Source: Candidatus Jettenia sp. | GTDB lineage: Bacteria > Planctomycetota > Brocadiia > Brocadiales > Brocadiaceae | Reading direction: 5' to 3' | Assembly: GCA_021650895.1 (NCBI GenBank) | Contig: CP091278.1 | Coordinates: 3,625,659 to 3,689,658 of the forward strand | DNA length: 64,000 nt | Part shown: positions 2,236 to 55,014 of the stretch, in pieces | Layout: the number at the start of each line of letters is the position of its first letter | Numbering within the stretch: position 1 is the stretch's first letter | The notes under the pieces: generated by a model | Told to the model about the DNA's origin: nothing | The model's input: only the letters and a program-made list of their open reading frames with translations | Database searches by the model: none | Program-made: the position numbers and the translations under genes

Positions 2236-4721
<2,486 letters not shown>

Positions 4722-4722
4722 C

Positions 4723-5031
4723 ATGGTTAAGAATAAAAAAGAAAAATATAGTCATGGAGAAGAATTTAGCAAAAAGGTAGGAATAAAAGAATCGCGCAGG
4801 ATAAAGGCCCGGCAGAAGAAAGGGTTTAGTATTATCTATGGATTAAGTATGTTTGGTATGGTTGGTTGGTCGGTAACTATTCCAACCATAATTCTTACAT
4901 TAATTGGAATCTGGCTGGATAGAGAGTGGCCTGGCAGATTCTCATGGACCCTTACGCTCATTGTCATTGGAGTAATTCTTGGATGTTTGAATGCATGGTA
5001 TTGGGTAAGAAAGGAGAGTCGGGGCGATTGA
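4723..5031 (+). CDS. atpQ: AtpQ (AtpI-like membrane protein of N-ATPases)
   Basis: 102 residues: a basic N-terminal tail of about 35 residues, then two hydrophobic segments (about 38-62 and 74-95), with GIWLDREWPGRFSW between them and LGCLNAWYWV near the end. This matches the AtpQ/AtpI-type gene found only after atpC in N-ATPase operons. AtpI-type proteins are thought to help c-ring assembly or metal supply. The gene begins one base after the atpC stop. Confidence 0.88.
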   Translation: MVKNKKEKYSHGEEFSKKVGIKESRRIKARQKKGFSIIYGLSMFGMVGWSVTIPTIILTLIGIWLDREWPGRFSWTLTLIVIGVILGCLNAWYWVRKESRGD

Positions 5032-5079
5032 GTTTATATAGATAACTTTATCAGAATTATGGTATAGCCTAATTTAACG

Positions 5080-5146
5080 TTGAGGAATTTCAATTATGTA
5101 GGGCAACCCTTTAGGGTTGCCTGGCAAGGCTAAAGCCTCGCCCTAC
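5080..5146 (+). repeat. R1 palindromic repeat between atpQ and atpR
   Basis: Two adjacent hairpins: GGGCAACCCTTTAGGGTTGCC and GGCAAGGCTAAAGCCTCGCC, within a GTAGGG...CCCTAC frame (core 5098-5146). A flank GTTGAGGAATTTCAATT precedes it. The same unit with the same flank recurs at 38986-39076 and, on the other strand and interrupted, at 8942-9548. It would form stable structure in the atp mRNA. Confidence 0.85.
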
Positions 5147-5173
5147 AGTAGAAAATGTAAAGAAGGCACAGGT

Positions 5174-5482
5174 ATGGCAAATGATATTATTTTTATCGTA
5201 TTGTCTCTTGCCAATGGTATTGGACTGAGCATACTGTATTTTGGAGGTCTTTGGTTAACGGTACAGGTTCTCCCTGTATCGAGTCGCCCTGCATTTTTTA
5301 TGGCAGGTAGTTTCCTTATGCGTATTGCAGCTACCTTATGTGGTCTTTATTTTATTATTGCTCATGGTGAATGGAAATCTTTATTAGCTTTCATGCTGGG
5401 GTTTCTATTCACGCGGATTGTTTTGATCCAACGATTACAATCACGGCATATTAATTTTAGACTTTTACTAAAGAAAAGATAA
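5174..5482 (+). CDS. atpR: N-ATPase subunit AtpR
   Basis: 102 residues from the ATG at 5174, with three hydrophobic segments. AtpR is specific to N-ATPase operons and is thought to help c-subunit assembly through conserved Arg residues in the membrane; RIAATLCGLYF and FLFTRIVL carry such residues. An earlier in-frame ATG at 5117 lies inside the R1 repeat and would add 19 unrelated residues, so the later start is chosen. It precedes atpB by 2 bases. Confidence 0.88.
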   Translation: MANDIIFIVLSLANGIGLSILYFGGLWLTVQVLPVSSRPAFFMAGSFLMRIAATLCGLYFIIAHGEWKSLLAFMLGFLFTRIVLIQRLQSRHINFRLLLKKR

Positions 5483-5484
5483 TT

Positions 5485-6162
5485 ATGGAAATAAGTCCTG
5501 ACTCTGTCATGATTTTTACCTGGGGATATTTTCATATCAACGCCACCATCGTATATACCTGGGTAGTAATGGCCTTATTGATCATCGTTTCCCTCTTAGT
5601 AACTCAGCATCTTTCTGCAGGATTTGCGTTATCTCGCTGGCAGAACTTTCTCGAGACCATGGTAGATTCTATGAGGAACCAGATTCGTGAAATTATTCTC
5701 CAGAGACCGGAGCCATACTTATCTTTCATAGGCACATTGTTTCTGTTTATCTCTATTTCAAACTTTCTCAGCATTGTGCCTGGATATTATCCTCCAACAA
5801 GTTCGTTTTCGACTACAGCAGCATTAGCTATTTGTGTATTTTTTGCGGTTCCCTTTTTCAGTATTACCCAATCAGGACTTGCAGGATATCTGAAGTATTA
5901 TGTAAAACCTTCAATGTTCATGCTTCCCTTTAATATTCTCGGGGTAATTTCACATACGCTGACACTCGCAATACGGCTATTCGGGAACATAATGAGCGGA
6001 ACCTTAATCGGTGCAATATTGATTTCAGTTATACCTTTTTTTGTTCCGGCAGTGATGGAGGTATTAGAGTTATTAATCGGACAAATTCAAGCCTATATCT
6101 TTGCTATCCTTGCTGCTGTATATATTGCATCTGCGACCCGTGCTGGCCGCAATGAGGAATGA
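5485..6162 (+). CDS. atpB: N-type ATPase subunit a
   Basis: A 225-residue integral membrane stator subunit with five to six hydrophobic segments. The conserved ion-path helix is seen as LTLAIRLFGNIMSGTLIG with the essential Arg, and the last helix as LLIGQIQAYIFAILAAVYIASA with the Q.Y.F pattern. It provides the two half-channels that pass the coupling ion to the c ring. Confidence 0.95.
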   Translation: MEISPDSVMIFTWGYFHINATIVYTWVVMALLIIVSLLVTQHLSAGFALSRWQNFLETMVDSMRNQIREIILQRPEPYLSFIGTLFLFISISNFLSIVPGYYPPTSSFSTTAALAICVFFAVPFFSITQSGLAGYLKYYVKPSMFMLPFNILGVISHTLTLAIRLFGNIMSGTLIGAILISVIPFFVPAVMEVLELLIGQIQAYIFAILAAVYIASATRAGRNEE

Positions 6163-6195
6163 TCAGGAAGGATTAAACAGAAAGGAGATCGTAAC

Positions 6196-6474
6196 ATGGA
6201 AATGAAAGATATTGTCAGTTTAGCTTCAATCATTATTGCAGGACTCACTATTGCTATTGGTTCAATCGGTCCTGCACTGGGGGAAGGACGGGCTTTAGCT
6301 CAGGCATTGAGTTCCATTGCGCAACAACCGGACGAGGCTAGTACCATTACCCGAACGTTATTTGTTGGTTTGGCAATGATAGAATCCGTTGCTATTTATT
6401 GTTTTGTTATTTCTATAATTCTTATTTTTGCCAACCCATTTTGGAACCATATAGTCTCGCAGGCGGGAAAATAG
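6196..6474 (+). CDS. atpE: N-type ATPase subunit c (rotor ring)
   Basis: A 92-residue two-helix hairpin with a clean Shine-Dalgarno (AAAGGAG) before the ATG. Helix 1 has SIGPALGEGRALAQAL with a membrane Glu (GEG); the polar loop is AQQPDEAS; helix 2 has MIESVAIYCF. Glu, the adjacent Ser and the Tyr five residues on are the positions of ligands known from Na-binding rings, but the usual helix 1 Gln is replaced by Glu. Two carboxylates per hairpin are typical of N-type rings, and at least one such ring has been reported to be proton-specific, so ion choice cannot be read from sequence alone. Confidence 0.94.
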   Translation: MEMKDIVSLASIIIAGLTIAIGSIGPALGEGRALAQALSSIAQQPDEASTITRTLFVGLAMIESVAIYCFVISIILIFANPFWNHIVSQAGK

Positions 6475-6477
6475 CCT

Positions 6478-7302
6478 ATGCAGATTGATGTACTCACGTT
6501 AATAGCGCAAATAATTAATTTTGTAATACTGGTGGTTCTGCTCAAGTACTTTCTGTATAACCGGATTGTTAAGGTTATGGATGAACGTAAAGAGAAAATT
6601 GTTTCGCAGTTAAAAGATGCAGACCAGAAGAAACAAGAGGCAGAGCAGGAAGCAGAATCTTATCGGAAAAAACTCAAAGAGCTAGATGATAAATACGAAG
6701 AAATGCTTTCAAACGCTCATGAAGAGGTAGAATCTCAGCGAAAAGAATTGCTGAAAAAGGCCCATGGTGAGATAAGGGAAGTCCAGGCTAAGTGGTATGA
6801 GGCAATCCAGCATGAGAGACAATTATTCATGAACGACATCCGCCAACAAGCGGGTAAAGAGGTTTATGCTGTTGCGCGTCGCGCCCTGGCAGATTTGGCA
6901 GATGCCGATCTTGGGCGACAGATAATCGACTTCTTTATCAAAAAAATCCAAAGGTTAGATGAACAGGAAATAGATAATCTGAGAAGATCTATACAGGGAT
7001 CGAAAAGATATGAAATTGATATAAACAGTGCATTTGAGATTCCACAGGAAATGCGCCAAAAAATGATACATGAAATACAAAAACAAATTACCAGTAATAT
7101 TAATGTGCGGTTTACGACATTGCCTAACCTGATCTGTGGAATAGAACTAAAAGTGAATGGGCGTAAAATTTCCTGGAATCTGGAGAATTACTTACGTGAT
7201 CTGGAAGATAATGTAACCAATGCCATCGAAAGAAAAATGAGGGAAAATCAAGAAAATATTTATCAGGAAAAGCAAAATGGAAAACGCCAGAAAAAAGAAT
7301 AA
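6478..7302 (+). CDS. atpF: N-type ATPase subunit b with delta-like C-terminal extension
   Basis: 274 residues against about 160 for ordinary b. A single N-terminal membrane segment (about 8-26) precedes a long charged coiled coil (about 35-150), the peripheral stalk. From about 185 to 255 it resembles the C-terminal part of subunit delta (PNLICGIELKVNGRKISWNL, compare the L.GG..L......D.S of delta). The operon has no separate delta gene, so this b is likely to replace delta in joining stalk and headpiece, as proposed for N-ATPases. Confidence 0.92.
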   Translation: MQIDVLTLIAQIINFVILVVLLKYFLYNRIVKVMDERKEKIVSQLKDADQKKQEAEQEAESYRKKLKELDDKYEEMLSNAHEEVESQRKELLKKAHGEIREVQAKWYEAIQHERQLFMNDIRQQAGKEVYAVARRALADLADADLGRQIIDFFIKKIQRLDEQEIDNLRRSIQGSKRYEIDINSAFEIPQEMRQKMIHEIQKQITSNINVRFTTLPNLICGIELKVNGRKISWNLENYLRDLEDNVTNAIERKMRENQENIYQEKQNGKRQKKE

Positions 7303-7351
7303 TTGCAGGAGGGAAAAAGATTCTTTCAGATGAAGGAGATGAAAAACGAAG

Positions 7352-8896
7352 ATGGTGAACACGGAGAAGGATAAGAGAGAGTTGAAAACTGTTCTAGATG
7401 ATACTTTTAAGGTTCTTAACAGGACACTTCGGGAGCATAAGGCCAAACTCGAATCTCGGGAGACAGGTACCGTATATTTTATTGGTGAAGGCATTGCCCG
7501 GGTGAAAGGGTTACCGGATGTTAAACTTAACGAACTCATTCGTTTTTCAGATAATAAAACAGGAATTGCATTCAATCTCGATCCGGACGAAATTGGCATT
7601 GTTTTATTGGATGAAGCGCAGACTTTAAAAGCTGGTAGTGAAGTTTATCGTACCGGCAGAGTTTTGGATACACCAGTAGGTGATGCCCTCCTTGGCCGTG
7701 TCGTTGATTCACTGGGTCGTCCCCTGGATGAACGGGGACCATTACATGCTTCACAACGGCAGCCTATTGAACGGGAAGCCCCGGGAATTCTAGACCGTGC
7801 GCCAGTAAGTGTTCCTCTTCAAACAGGAATTCTGGTAATTGATGCTCTGATTCCTATTGGAAGAGGTCAACGGGAATTAATTCTTGGCGATAGGCAAACT
7901 GGCAAAACCTCCATTGCAGTTAATGCTATAATCAATCAGAGGGATAAAGATGTTATTTGTGTTTATTGTTCAATAGGGCAGAAAATTTCCGGAGTCGCAA
8001 AGGTAATTGATGATTTACGTAAATACGGGGCAATGAAAAAATGTATTGTAGTAGTAGCGACCGGAGAGGATTCTCCAGGACTAAGATTTGCTGCTCCGTA
8101 CGCTGCTACCTCTATGGCAGAATACTTTATGGAACAAGGGAAAGATGTCTTAATCGTATATGATGATTTATCCCATCATGCGCGTACGTATCGGGAGATC
8201 TCTTTGCTTCTTCGTAGACCTCCTGCCAGAGAGGCGTACCCTGGCGATATATTCTATATTCACTCGCGATTGCTTGAGCGTTCTACTCATCTGAGTAAGG
8301 AGTATGGTGGCGGTTCTCTTACTGCTTTGCCTATTGTTGAGACAGAAGCACAAAATATATCAGCATATATTCCAACGAATCTTATTTCTATTACTGATGG
8401 CCAAATTTATCTTTCTCCTGAGCTATTTCAAAAAGGTATTTTGCCTGCTCTTGATGTTGGGAAATCAGTTTCCCGCGTGGGAGGAAAGGCGCAATTATCA
8501 GCATACCATGAAATTGCCGGTAATTCTCGCTTGTCTTATTCTCAGTTTGAAGAATTAGAATCATTTGCGCGTTTTGGAACACGACTTGATGAAAGAACTC
8601 GAAAGATACTTGCGCGTGGTCAGCATATCCGTGAGATTTTGAAACAATCGCCGTATGATTTACTATCGGCTCCTGAGCAGGTTGCTATCCTCTTGTCGGT
8701 GACACAAGGCCTCTTTGATAATGTCCCAATTGGTAAGATGAATGAGGTTAAAAAGGCTGTTCGAAAGGTGACTTTAGAAAAGCTGTCCGATATAGGCAAA
8801 CGGATTCTGGCAGATGAAAAACTGAATGATGATGACAAAAAAGCAATACTCGGTACTGTAGAAAAGGCCATACAATCAGGTAATTATTCAAAATAA
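7352..8896 (+). CDS. atpA: N-type ATPase subunit alpha
   Basis: A 514-residue non-catalytic nucleotide-binding subunit. The beta-barrel domain ([19 protein letters not shown]) is followed by the P-loop GDRQTGKT and the [20 protein letters not shown] stretch. The start at 7352 has GAAGGAG ten bases upstream. It is the last gene of the compact part of the operon; atpG lies 687 bp further on, beyond a block of repeats. Confidence 0.96.
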
Positions 8897-8961
8897 GACG
8901 CAGAACTGATGATGGAGAAGACGTATCATAAGTCTTTCTGTGTAGGGCGAGGCTTTGGCCT

Positions 8962-9485
8962 CATATGCATCAAGCTAACATGTGGAAACGGTGAAGAACA
9001 TAATCCCCCTTAGTCCCCCTTTAGAAAACTTATCCTTACCCACAAGTTAGGTAGGGAGCGAAGGTAGAAGCAAGGTAAACCACGAAGTACACGAAGAAAG
9101 AAGAACGTAGAGAAGCAAGATTTTGCGCCTTTACAATTGAGGTAGGGGTGTGTTGCTTCGCCTCAAGAAGGGATCGATCATAAAAAGAATTTATTGAGAT
9201 TTGGAACTCTCTTATTCTTCGTGTACTTCGTGTTCTTTGTGGTATTTAAAGATGTGGGTAAGGACAAGTTTAGAAAAGGGAGAAAAGTTTGATATTGTTG
9301 ATCAGGCAAACTTTTCTCAAGAGAAAATCCTTCCTTCTTTCTCCCCTTTTCTAAACTTATCCTTCTTTCCCCCTTTTTTAAAGGGGGGTTAGGGGGGATT
9401 AGAGGGGAATATGGGCACACATTGTTCTCTTTCCAAGGAGATACCTCCTTTTTTATGGAACACTATTCTTAGCTTGATGCGTATG
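8962..9485 (-). mobile_element. M2 non-autonomous mobile element, copy A (524 bp)
   Basis: The left end CATATGCATCAAGCTAA (8962-8978) and right end TTAGCTTGATGCGTATG (9469-9485) are inverted repeats with one mismatch. The 11 bases outside are duplicated: GGCTTTGGCCT (8951-8961) and GGCTTTAGCCT (9486-9496), one mismatch. Inside are C-rich/G-rich stretches (CCCCCTTTTCTAAAGGGGG type) and an M3 module. No coding frame resembles a transposase. Orientation is opposite to copies B and C. It separates atpA from atpG. Confidence 0.82.
9026..9271 (+). repeat. M3 inner module nested in M2 copy A
   Basis: 246 bp bounded by AAACTTATCCTTACCCACA and its near-complement TGTGGGTAAGGACAAGTTT. It contains inverted CACGAAGTACACGAAG motifs. 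A second copy in opposite internal orientation is at 54658-54904, and a relic lies near 24405-24450. Confidence 0.7.
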
Positions 9486-9582
9486 GGCTTTAGCCTTGCC
9501 AGGCAATCCTAAAGGGTTGCCCTACGGAATTGAAATTTCTCAACATTAAACTTCAGGTCTGAAAAAGGGAAAGAGATCGGGA

Positions 9583-10470
9583 ATGGAAACGTATGAGTCG
9601 TTGCGGGGTAAATTGAGAAGCGCGCAAGAATTAAAGTCTATCGTCAGGACTATGAAGACTATAGCTGCAGTTGCTATCCGGCAATATGAGAGGGCTGTAG
9701 AATCGCTTTCCGAGTATAACCGGGCCGTTGAATTGGGATTTCAATTTCTTTTGAAAAAAGAACCTGAGAGGGTGATGGAACGAGGCCAAATGTCTGGTGG
9801 CAATCTTTGTGCAATAGTCTTTGGTTCAGATCAGGGCATGTGTGGACAGTTTAATGATCGAATCGTATCGTTTGCAATTGATAACATGAATAGGATTCAA
9901 AAACCGGAAAGCAGGATACTTTTGGGTATTGGTGTACGGGTAGCTACGCGCCTTGAAGGGGAAAAGCAGCCCGTGGAAGAACAATTTTCTGTTCCCGGAT
10001 CAGTTGAAGGCATCATTCCCATGGTACAAAAGGTATTGATTAGGATAGAGGATTTACGCTCCAATAAGAGGATTGATCAAATTGTCATATTTTACCATAA
10101 GCGGCTATCAGGCTCAACATACAAACCTCGTATGGCATATCTTCTTCCTTTAAATACAAAGTGGCTTCGGGGTTTGGAAAAAAGGGAATGGCCTACACGT
10201 GTTCTTCCCCTATACACTATGGATTGGAACCAATTATTCTCAGCATTAATCCGTCAATACCTGTTCTTTTTACTATACCGCGCATCTGCGGAATCTCTGG
10301 CCAGTGAGAATGCCAGTCGTTTATCATCAATGCAGGCTGCGGAGAAAAACATTGAGGATCGTCTGGAAGAACTCAGGAACCAATTTAATCAGCAACGCCA
10401 GGATTCAATTACTGCCGAAATGATGGATATTGTGGCCGGCTTTGAGACATTAACTAGCAAGAGAATATAG
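9583..10470 (+). CDS. atpG: N-type ATPase subunit gamma
   Basis: A 295-residue rotor shaft subunit. The N-terminal helix carries the conserved pattern LRSAQELKSIVRTMKTIAAV, the centre has VFGSDQGMCGQFND, and the C-terminal helix ends in ENASRLSSMQAAEKNIEDRL...RQDSITAEMMDIVAGFE, which pairs with the N-terminal helix as a coiled coil. It completes the operon order atpDCQRBEFAG. Its distance from atpA comes entirely from inserted repeats; whether it has its own promoter in that block cannot be seen. Confidence 0.94.
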   Translation: METYESLRGKLRSAQELKSIVRTMKTIAAVAIRQYERAVESLSEYNRAVELGFQFLLKKEPERVMERGQMSGGNLCAIVFGSDQGMCGQFNDRIVSFAIDNMNRIQKPESRILLGIGVRVATRLEGEKQPVEEQFSVPGSVEGIIPMVQKVLIRIEDLRSNKRIDQIVIFYHKRLSGSTYKPRMAYLLPLNTKWLRGLEKREWPTRVLPLYTMDWNQLFSALIRQYLFFLLYRASAESLASENASRLSSMQAAEKNIEDRLEELRNQFNQQRQDSITAEMMDIVAGFETLTSKRI

Positions 10471-17276: not shown

Positions 17277-17287
17277 GGGTAGATTCA

Positions 17288-17790
17288 TATATGCATCAAG
17301 CTAAGAATGGTGTTCCATAAAAAAGGAGGTATCTCCCTGGAAAGAGAACAACGTATGTCCATGTTCCCCTCTAATCCCCCCTAACCCCCTTTAGAAAAGG
17401 GGGAGAAAGAAGGATAAGTTTAGAAAAGCAGGGTGGCACGGACAAACCATGTCCCCGTACGCTTTGAACGGGGACATGGTTTGTCTGTGGTGTTCGAATA
17501 CACCCGTGGATAGGGAATATACCACACTGACAAACAGAGTTTGTCAGTGCCACCCAGGAAGAGGCTTACAGAGCATAACAATTTCTCGAGAGACGCCCCC
17601 GGCGAGATGTCTCTATATTCTAAAGATGTGGGTAAGGATAAGTTTAGAAAAGGGGGAAAAGAAGGAAGGATTTTCTCCTGAGAAAAGTTTGCCTGATCAA
17701 AAATATCAAACTTTTCCCCCTTTTCTAAAGGGGGATTAAGGGGGATTATGTTATTCTCCACCATTTCCATATTTTAGCTTGATGCATATG
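17288..17790 (+). mobile_element. M2 non-autonomous mobile element, copy B (503 bp)
   Basis: The left end is TATATGCATCAAGCTAA and the right end TTAGCTTGATGCATATG. The 11-bp duplications outside are GGGTAGATTCA (17277-17287) and GGGTGGATTCA (17791-17801), one mismatch, so the element landed in an R7-type repeat. It carries G-rich stretches and an inner insert (about 17430-17625) containing R3 sequence (GGCACGGACAAACCATG) and ending GTGGGTAAGGATAAGTTT. No transposase frame was seen. Confidence 0.82.
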
Positions 17791-17864
17791 GGGTGGATTC
17801 AGCGGAGCGAATCCACCATAGCATCTTTTCAAACAATCTCAAGATCTAAAAAGGAGGAATACAG

Positions 17865-24352: not shown

Positions 24353-24463
24353 CACCTTATCTTGATGTAGAGGAAATGCAAAGTTTTTCATGATGTCGTT
24401 AACACACCCCTAACCTCAATTGTTGAGGCGTAAGATTCTGCATCTCTACAGGGGAATGAACCC

Positions 24464-24723
24464 CATATGCATCAAGCTAAGAGTAGTGTTTCATAAAAAA
24501 GAAGGTATTCCCCTGGAAAAAGAGCACTGTATGTTCATATTTCCTTCTAATCCCCCCTAACCCCCCTTTAAAAAAGGGGGGAAAGAGGGATAAGTTTAGA
24601 AAAGGGGGAACGAAGGATTTCCCCCTTTTCTAAAACACCCATATATTTCCCCCTTTTCTAAAGGGGGATTAAGGGGGATTATGTCATTCTTCACCGTTTC
24701 CACATGTTAGCTTGATGCATATG
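24464..24723 (+). mobile_element. M2 non-autonomous mobile element, copy C (260 bp, cleanest)
   Basis: The ends CATATGCATCAAGCTAA (24464-24480) and TTAGCTTGATGCATATG (24707-24723) are perfect 17-bp inverted repeats. The flanks GGAATGAACCC (24453-24463) and GGAATGAACCC (24724-24734) are a perfect 11-bp target duplication. The interior is only G/C-run hairpins (AAAAGGGGG, CCCCCTTTT). It lacks the inner inserts of copies A and B, so it may be near the minimal unit. The sequence just left (24405-24460) is a relic of the M3 module. Confidence 0.88.
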
Positions 24724-24731
24724 GGAATGAA

Positions 24732-24977
24732 CCCACCCCTAACCCCTCCCAAGAGGGGAATAAAAACTAGTCCTCGACCCGATCGGGGAAAGTCCCCTCT
24801 CGGGAGGGGATTGAGGGGTGGGTAAAAAAGAACAGCCGTTGAGTTTTGCCTTTTAAAACCCAACCTAATTTAATGTTTAGGACTTTCAAAGTATTTTGTT
24901 TTTCCATGTCATTCCCACGAAAGTGGGAATCCAGGCACTGTTTGAGGAATCTGGATTCCCGTTTACACGGGAATGAC
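24732..24977. repeat. Two further hairpin repeats between DUF2267 and the kinase gene
   Basis: The first (24732-24822) has CCCACCCCT and CCCCTCCC arms matching GGGAGGGG and AGGGGTGGG. The second (24908-24977) pairs GTCATTCCCACG and CGGGAATGAC around TGGGAATCCAG and CTGGATTCCC; relatives lie at 33296-33370 and 54556-54586. No gene is seen between 24163 and 25039. Confidence 0.7.
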
Positions 24978-31662: not shown

Positions 31663-31849
31663 TAGTACACTGTCAATATAATTCATGATAATACGGTTTG
31701 TATCGGTTCAACTGCATGCTGTGTCATTGCGAGGGTATTGTCCGAAGCAATCTCCTGGATATTTCAAAAGAGATTGCTTCGGGAAAATACCCCTCGCAAT
31801 GACACATACGAGAGAGTCTATTATGATAAATTAAGTTGACAATGTACTA
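31663..31849 (+). mobile_element. M1 MITE, copy 1 (about 187 bp)
   Basis: The ends GTACACTGTCAA and TTGACAATGTAC are inverted repeats flanked by TA on both sides. The centre is a long near-perfect hairpin (GTGTCATTGCGAGGGTATT with its complement, enclosing AGCAATCTC/GAGATTGCT). There is no coding frame. TA duplication fits the IS630/Tc1-mariner style. It lies 17 bp after the fascin-like gene. Confidence 0.88.
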
Positions 31850-36730: not shown

Positions 36731-36920
36731 TACTGCACTGTCAATATAATTCATGATAATACGATTTGTATCCGCTCAACTGCATGGGGCTGTGTCATTG
36801 CGAGGGTATTGTCCGAAGCAATCTCCTGGATATTTCACAAGAGATTGCTTCGGGAAAATACCCCTCGCAATGACACATACGAGAGAGCCTATTATGATAA
36901 ATTAAGTTGACAGTGTACTA
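36731..36920 (+). mobile_element. M1 MITE, copy 2 (about 190 bp)
   Basis: Same structure as the copy at 31.7 kb, with left end CTGCACTGTCAA (two changes) and right end TTGACAGTGTAC, flanked by TA. The internal hairpin is the same. It sits at the 5' side of the broken fascin-like gene and may have cut it. Confidence 0.88.
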
Positions 36921-53705: not shown

Positions 53706-54100
53706 TCCATTTCTCCAGAAATATATCTTTATTTTCTTCTATTAATTTATGGATTTTTATAAGATCATGATCACTAAATCCTTTAGATTTTTGTAATCGT
53801 ACAGGATTTAACCAAAATTTTGCCGTAAATCTTTCTTGCCTAACATGAATATGGGGTAGTCCGTTCTTATCACTAGTACACTGTCAATATAATTCATGAT
53901 AATACGGTTCAACTGCATGTGGCTGTGTCATTGCGAGGGTATTGTCCGAAGCAATCCCCTGGATATCTCAAAAGAGATTGCTTCGGGAAAATACCCCTCG
54001 CAATGACACATACGAGAGAGTCTATTATGATAAATTAAGTTGACAGTGTACTAGAATAAAAGAAAAAATGATAAGGACCAATATTTGCAACAGTTGGCAT
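53686..54100 (-). pseudogene. DUF4160 gene interrupted by an M1 MITE
   Basis: The 5' part (54100 down to 54052) reads MPTVANIGPYHFFFYS. The 3' part (from about 53877 down to 53686) reads SDKNGLPHIHVRQERFTAKF, WLNPVRLQKSKGFSDHDLIK and on to EKWNEYFST. Removing the MITE and one TA joins the halves in frame as a full DUF4160 protein of about 80 residues with its HIHV motif. This is a direct before/after view of a transposition event. Confidence 0.9.
53874..54053 (+). mobile_element. M1 MITE, copy 3 (180 bp), inside DUF4160
   Basis: Ends GTACACTGTCAA and TTGACAGTGTAC, flanked by TA. It is like copies 1 and 2 but lacks about 10 bases (TTTGTATC region) near the left end. The internal long hairpin is intact. 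Confidence 0.92.
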
Positions 54101-54586: not shown

Positions 54587-54639
54587 AAATGGAGAATGGA
54601 AATGGCAGAAAATACGTGAGGATAGCAGGAAAACAGACC

Positions 54640-55014
54640 TTCTTTCCCCCCTTTTTTAAAGCTTGTCCTTACCCACATCTTTAAATACCACAAAGAACAC
54701 GAAGTACACGAAGAATAAGAGAGTTCCAAATCTCAATAAATTCTTTTTATGATCGATCCCTTCTTGAGGCGAAGCAATGCACCCCTACCTCAATTGTAAA
54801 AGCGCAAAATCTTGCTTCTCTACGCCCTTCTTTCTTCGTGTACTTCGTGGTTTACCTTGCTTCTACCTTCACTCTCTACCTAACTTGTGGGTAAGGATAA
54901 GTTTTTAAAGGGGGGTTAGGGGGAATTAGAGGGGAAGCATAGACACACATTGTTCTTTCTCCAGGGGGATAACCTCTTTTTTCATGGAACACTATTCTTA
55001 GCTTGAGGCATATG
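54640..55014 (-). mobile_element. M2 element, copy D (partial; left end missing)
   Basis: The right arm is very close to copy A (CATGGAACACTATTCTTAGC, ending TTGAGGCATATG at 55014). The inner M3 module occupies 54658-54904, inverted relative to copy A. No left terminal repeat or target duplication is found, so it is truncated or rearranged. Confidence 0.7.

What the first reader, a model, noticed from the sequence alone, without database searches (positions are those of the whole stretch)
24453..24734. A mobile repeat family (M2) with 17-bp ends and 11-bp target duplications
Copy C has perfect inverted ends (CATATGCATCAAGCTAA) and a perfect 11-bp duplication GGAATGAACCC. Copies A (8962-9485) and B (17288-17790) have the same ends and 11-bp duplications with one mismatch each; copy D (to 55014) is partial. 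None encodes a transposase. I do not recognise this family. An 11-bp duplication is within the range made by IS4-type enzymes, so a trans-acting transposase of that kind is a reasonable guess.
Basis: partly seen in the sequence, partly recalled or inferred. Interest (0 to 1): 0.75.

Follow-up and report, generated by a model that had tools for sequence, protein, structure and literature searches.

The report
Hairpin MITE family mobilised by IS4
The repeats are about a hundred transposase-less hairpin insertions (MITEs) in an anammox bacterium, moved in the past by an IS4-family (IS231-type) transposase that this genome no longer carries but whose broken remains survive in a sister species; it is a well-supported new member of a known kind.

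Summary
The 17-bp end occurs about 214 times in the 3.8-Mb genome (5 in the reversed control); 69 inverted pairs, 153-882 bp apart, were extracted. In 36 of 69 the flanks carry a clear 10- or 11-bp duplication, against about 1% with shuffled flanks. The duplicated target has a palindromic consensus, RGGSTTWAASCCY. The sister species G001 has clean empty sites for copy B and for another copy. Copies A and C each fold as one long hairpin; no transposase gene was seen in M2. The 17-mer fits the published IS231-subgroup end (CAT-------AA--TAA, duplications 10-12 bp) exactly. Complete IS4-family elements in Crenothrix, Methylotuvimicrobium and Oscillatoria have the same ends but for one base, a variant also seen in M2 copies, and similar 10-11 bp targets. 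The host genome has no such transposase. The sister species carries two truncated IS copies with this end about 100 bp upstream of an IS4 transposase N-terminus, and two contigs that stop inside that IS. So M2 is a MITE family mobilised in trans by an IS231-type IS4 transposase, apparently orphaned here. New member of a known kind; moderate interest.

The parts
24453..24463 (.). left target-site duplication of copy C (GGAATGAACCC)
   Evidence: perfect repeat of 24724-24734
24464..24723 (+). M2 copy C, 260-bp MITE; 17-bp perfect terminal inverted repeats at 24464-24480 and 24707-24723; folds as one hairpin
   Evidence: RNA MFE -116 kcal/mol, z -11.3; DNA z -9.9
24724..24734 (.). right target-site duplication of copy C
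8951..8961 (.). left target-site duplication of copy A (GGCTTTGGCCT), inside a hairpin repeat
8962..9485 (-). M2 copy A, 524 bp, between the ATPase alpha and gamma genes; hairpin
   Evidence: z -12.1; the block is absent from two related species
9486..9496 (.). right target-site duplication of copy A (GGCTTTAGCCT)
17277..17287 (.). left target-site duplication of copy B (GGGTAGATTCA)
17288..17790 (+). M2 copy B, 503 bp; clean empty site in sister species G001, an M2 element present at the same site in G002
17791..17801 (.). right target-site duplication of copy B (GGGTGGATTCA)
54627..55014 (-). M2 copy D, truncated: right end at 54998-55014 only, left end missing

Best explanation
M2 is a family of MITEs (non-autonomous hairpin transposons) of an anammox bacterium. 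An IS4-family transposase of the IS231 type recognises the 17-bp ends CATAYGCATCAAGCTAA. It excises the element (cut-and-paste, as known for IS4 elements) and inserts it with staggered cuts 10-11 bp apart into a GC-flanked palindromic target (RGGSTTWAASCCY), usually between genes and often in other small hairpin repeats. The transposase worked in trans. Its source IS shares only the ends with M2 and is no longer found in this genome; broken copies remain in a sister species. Shown: ends, duplications, empty sites, target consensus, hairpin fold, related IS with the same ends, IS remnant in the sister species. Inferred: recognition and cleavage of M2 by that transposase, cut-and-paste, loss of the partner.
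For: About 214 ends and 69 pairs; 36 of 69 with 10-11 bp duplications against about 1% by chance. Empty sites in G001 at copy B and at the copy at genome 3230839. The end fits the IS231-subgroup signature CAT-------AA--TAA---, duplications 10-12 bp (PMC2266710 Table 1). Complete IS4 elements with ends CATACGCATCAAGCTAA and 10-11 bp duplications GGTTTAAGCC, GGTTGCAAACC, GGTTTGTAACC, CGGTGTAGCCC; the two transposases scanned (Crenothrix 472 aa, Methylotuvimicrobium 408 aa) match NCBIfam IS4 model NF033592 over cut-off. In sister G001 two truncated IS copies: this end, about 100 bp, then an 85-aa IS4 transposase N-terminus (38-44% identical to IS4 transposases of Crenothrix, a Kuenenia-type genome and Anammoxibacter); two more contigs stop inside this IS. 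No transposase gene in the window copies.
Against: No intact transposase with these ends was found in the host genome: its PF01609 hits that were classified are IS1634, IS701 and IS5 types. M2 and the sister-species IS share only the 17-18 terminal bases. 27 of 69 pairs have no recognisable duplication, and most copies are only 80-90% alike, so much of the family is old. The distant IS with the same ends could be convergent at 17 bp, though target type and duplication length agree.
Confidence: 0.9

Rival explanations
1. M2 is still mobilised today by an intact IS4/IS231-type IS that lies on a plasmid or in part of the population and was not captured in this chromosome.
For: One pair of copies at different sites is 99.2% identical and another 94.4%; copies absent at orthologous sites in the sister species; contigs of G001 end inside the IS, as a multi-copy repeat would cause.
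Against: The host genome is one 3.82-Mb contig, 99.9% complete, in which no such gene was found; most copies are 80-90% alike.
Confidence: 0.25
2. M2 is moved by a different IS4 branch present in relatives (the 1592-bp IS of G005, ends CATACGTGTTAAGCTAAG, or the Kuenenia type, ends CATACGCATCAACCTAAC).
For: These are IS4 elements with 10-bp duplications; the G005 IS sits in the same target sequence, GGATGAAGGG or its complement, as five M2-ended MITEs of that genome.
Against: Their ends differ from M2 at 4 and 2 of 17 bases; neither type was found in this genus, while an IS with an end identical to an M2 variant was.
Confidence: 0.1
3. REP/RAYT-type palindromes, or static hairpins copied by recombination rather than transposition.
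For: Strong hairpins in intergenic regions, and 27 of 69 pairs without duplications.
Against: Long terminal repeats, 10-11 bp target duplications and clean empty sites are not expected of RAYT or of recombination (established knowledge).
Confidence: 0.02

Closest known systems
IS231 subgroup of the IS4 family (PMC2266710)
   Same: End signature CAT-------AA--TAA---, 10-12 bp duplications, insertion specificity; IS231A known for cut-and-paste.
   Different: M2 has no transposase; the host is an anammox planctomycete, while IS231 was described almost only from the Bacillus cereus group. Whether the related anammox, Crenothrix and Methylotuvimicrobium transposases fall in IS231 proper or a neighbouring branch was not resolved by a tree.
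MIC231 mobile insertion cassettes (cited in PMC2266710, refs B2, B3)
   Same: IS231-type ends without a transposase, variable size, modular interior.
   Different: MICs carry passenger genes; the window copies of M2 carry none, only hairpin-forming repeats.
Bacterial MITEs in general
   Same: Short, non-coding, terminal inverted repeats, target duplications, high copy number, hairpin fold, intergenic.
   Different: Unusually variable length (153-882 bp) through changes of the hairpin middle, and often nested in other palindromic repeats.

Membership tests
MITE (non-autonomous IS derivative) | short, no transposase gene, terminal inverted repeats | tested here: met
   153-882 bp, 17-bp ends; no transposase ORF inside the window copies
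MITE (non-autonomous IS derivative) | target-site duplication at many independent loci | tested here: met
   36 of 69 in this genome, 8 of 26 in G002, 5 of 12 in G005; null about 1%
MITE (non-autonomous IS derivative) | empty sites in related genomes | tested here: met
   G001 at copy B and at the copy at genome 3230839
MITE (non-autonomous IS derivative) | an autonomous IS with the same ends | tested here: met
   truncated IS in sister species G001; complete IS with one end difference in Crenothrix, Methylotuvimicrobium, Oscillatoria; none intact found in the host genome
IS4 family, IS231 subgroup | ends CAT-------AA--TAA--- | tested here: met
   CATATGCATCAAGCTAA fits all fixed positions
IS4 family, IS231 subgroup | direct repeats of 10-12 bp | tested here: met
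   10 or 11 bp
IS4 family, IS231 subgroup | own transposase with DDE and YREK motif | tested here: not met
   absent from M2; YREK present in the related IS. M2 is a derivative mobilised in trans, not itself an IS.
IS4 family, IS231 subgroup | target specificity GGG(N)5CCC (from memory for IS231A) | tested here: inconclusive
   M2 consensus RGGSTTWAASCCY is compatible; the IS231A consensus itself was not found in the held papers
Mobile insertion cassette (MIC) | passenger gene between IS ends | tested here: not met
   no credible passenger ORF in the window copies

The most novel reading that the evidence does not exclude
The long hairpins carried by M2, some inside operons (copy A between ATPase alpha and gamma genes), have been put to use as transcript-processing or termination elements, so that an orphaned MITE family is kept by the host rather than merely decaying.
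Probability: 0.08. Interest if true: 0.55.

Novelty: new member of a known kind. Interest (0 to 1): 0.4.

Why it matters
It gives a likely mechanism and partner for an abundant repeat of an anammox genome (about 100 copies; the ends are abundant in only 4 of the 39 genomes checked) and makes the idea testable in an ordinary transposition assay. A MITE that has outlasted its transposase in one species, with the broken IS still present in a sister species, is a good case for how orphan MITEs arise. It also explains insertion differences between species at these sites.

Tried and rejected
Plasmid records: no match. The 1967-bp M2-ended element L139 looked like the autonomous IS but is a MITE interrupted by an IS1182-type element. 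The 1592-bp IS L115 has related but not identical ends. Transposases of the host genome (IS1634, IS701, IS5) have no M2 ends near them. Copy A is not a clean empty-site test, because the whole block with its host repeat is missing in both relatives; copy C is present in G002 and the region is rearranged in G001. Targets are not strictly palindromic beyond the duplicated bases, although they are hairpin-rich. Conservation of the hairpin by compensatory changes was not tested. Papers on MITEs or IS elements in this group: none found to the point.

Full report
What was checked. The three full copies and the partial one are as described. Copy C is 24464-24723 with perfect 17-bp inverted ends and perfect 11-bp repeats GGAATGAACCC; copies A and B have one mismatch in one end and one in the duplication. 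Copy D keeps only its right end. In the window the end occurs 7 times against 0.27 expected.

Whole genome. The window lies in a single 3.82-Mb contig, 99.9% complete. The end is found 214 times at up to 3 mismatches, and 5 times in the reversed control. I took stretches around the listed ends and found 69 inverted pairs 153-882 bp long. Twenty-seven have an 11-bp duplication with at most one mismatch, nine a 10-bp one, six an 11-bp one with two mismatches; the rest have none recognisable. With right flanks shuffled among copies, 1.1% show an 11-bp match with at most one mismatch and 0.3% an exact 10-bp match. G002 (same genus) gives 8 of 26 and G005 (another genus of the family) 5 of 12. Among 39 genomes the ends are abundant only in G000, G001, G002 and G005.

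Target. The 32 distinct 11-bp sites give the symmetric consensus RGGSTTWAASCCY. The element mostly avoids genes: 17% of sites are spanned by an open frame of at least 120 codons, against 68% of random places in the same stretches. Thirteen of 36 sites lie in a dispersed hairpin repeat containing GGCTTTAGCC or GGCTAAAGCC.

Empty sites. In G001 (about 95% identical here) the two flanks of copy B meet with a single target (G001 GGATGGATTCA; window GGGTAGATTCA / GGGTGGATTCA), while G002 carries an M2 element at that place. The copy at genome 3230839 is likewise absent in G001, the two flank alignments overlapping by 14 bp.

Structure. Copies have two different arms, called a and b, of at least 60 bp including the shared ends; 46 of 69 pair an a-arm with a b-arm, and a few other arm types exist. 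The middle is variable and built of direct and inverted AAGGATAAGTTTAGAAAAGGGGG-like units. The element folds as one hairpin: copy C -116 kcal/mol, z -11.3; copy A z -12.1; as DNA copy C z -9.9. Other copies were not folded. Copies with a full-length partner are mostly 80-90% alike; one pair is 99.2% identical.

Partner. Published IS231-subgroup ends are CAT-------AA--TAA--- with direct repeats of 10-12 bp (PMC2266710 Table 1); CATATGCATCAAGCTAA fits every fixed position. A scan of genome contigs with an alignment of IS4 transposases found complete elements whose ends are CATACGCATCAAGCTAA, which is one base from M2 and the same as a variant seen in several M2 copies. They are Crenothrix polyspora, 1542 bp, duplication GGTTTAAGCC; Methylotuvimicrobium buryatense, GGTTGCAAACC and GGTTTGTAACC; and Oscillatoria HE19RPO, CGGTGTAGCCC. 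The Crenothrix and Methylotuvimicrobium transposases match the NCBIfam IS4 model over cut-off and have the YREK motif; in the Oscillatoria element the longest transposase ORF listed is only 260 aa. More distant relatives in anammox genomes have ends CATACGCATCAACCTAAC or CATACGTGTTAAGCTAAG and 10-bp duplications.

The host genome has nine PF01609 hits, none near an M2 end; those classified belong to IS1634, IS701 and IS5, and searches with the Crenothrix, Kuenenia-type and G005 transposases find nothing in it. In the sister species G001 two loci show the end CATACGCATCAAGCTAA, about 100 bp of leader, and then an ATG and about 85 residues of an IS4 transposase; one is joined to unrelated sequence and the other is interrupted by a sequence beginning with an M2-like end. 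The fragment is 38-44% identical to transposases of Anammoxibacter, Crenothrix and a Kuenenia-type genome. Two further G001 contigs end inside the same IS left end, as happens at multi-copy repeats; that an intact IS exists there is an inference.

Reading. M2 is a MITE family mobilised in trans by an IS231-type IS4 transposase. Shown here: ends, duplications, target, empty sites, hairpins, related IS, broken IS in the sister species. Inferred: recognition and cleavage by that transposase, cut-and-paste, and loss of the partner from this genome. The organism is an anammox bacterium of the Brocadiaceae: named records of Loosdrechtia and Kuenenia hertensis correspond to family members in the search. 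The genus Jettenia is my guess only.

Verdict. It is a new member of a known kind, with moderate interest for the documented loss of the autonomous partner and the strong preference for GC-flanked intergenic targets in hairpin repeats.

Noticed in passing
window 2959-10470: ATPase operon in the order beta, epsilon, two small membrane proteins, a, (c), b, alpha, gamma, which resembles the N-ATPase operon atpDCQRBEFAG (naming from memory); M2 copy A lies between alpha and gamma.
   Followed up: no
window 31663-31847, 36736-36918, 53873-54054: A repeat of about 185 bp, 90-94% identical to part of the interior of one M2 copy (genome 3221267), so one repeat is nested in another.
   Followed up: no
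L147:410-3139, L143:521-2992: IS4 elements of 2.5-2.7 kb in anammox genomes carry, beside the transposase, a 310-316 aa gene with a DruA domain (PF14236), a possible defence-related passenger gene. Similar-length elements in L168 and L271 were not scanned for it.
   Followed up: partly
L139:847-2813: An M2-ended MITE in G005 interrupted by an IS1182-type element with a broken transposase.
   Followed up: partly
G005, L115 and L220, L227, L230, L234, L245: Five M2-ended MITEs and the 1592-bp IS4 element of this genome sit in the same target, GGATGAAGGG or its complement, in a G-rich repeat.
   Followed up: no
window 8940-9552 and other sites: A dispersed hairpin repeat of the type GTAGGGCRAGGCTTTAGCCTTGCCCTAC is a frequent landing site of M2.
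   Followed up: partly
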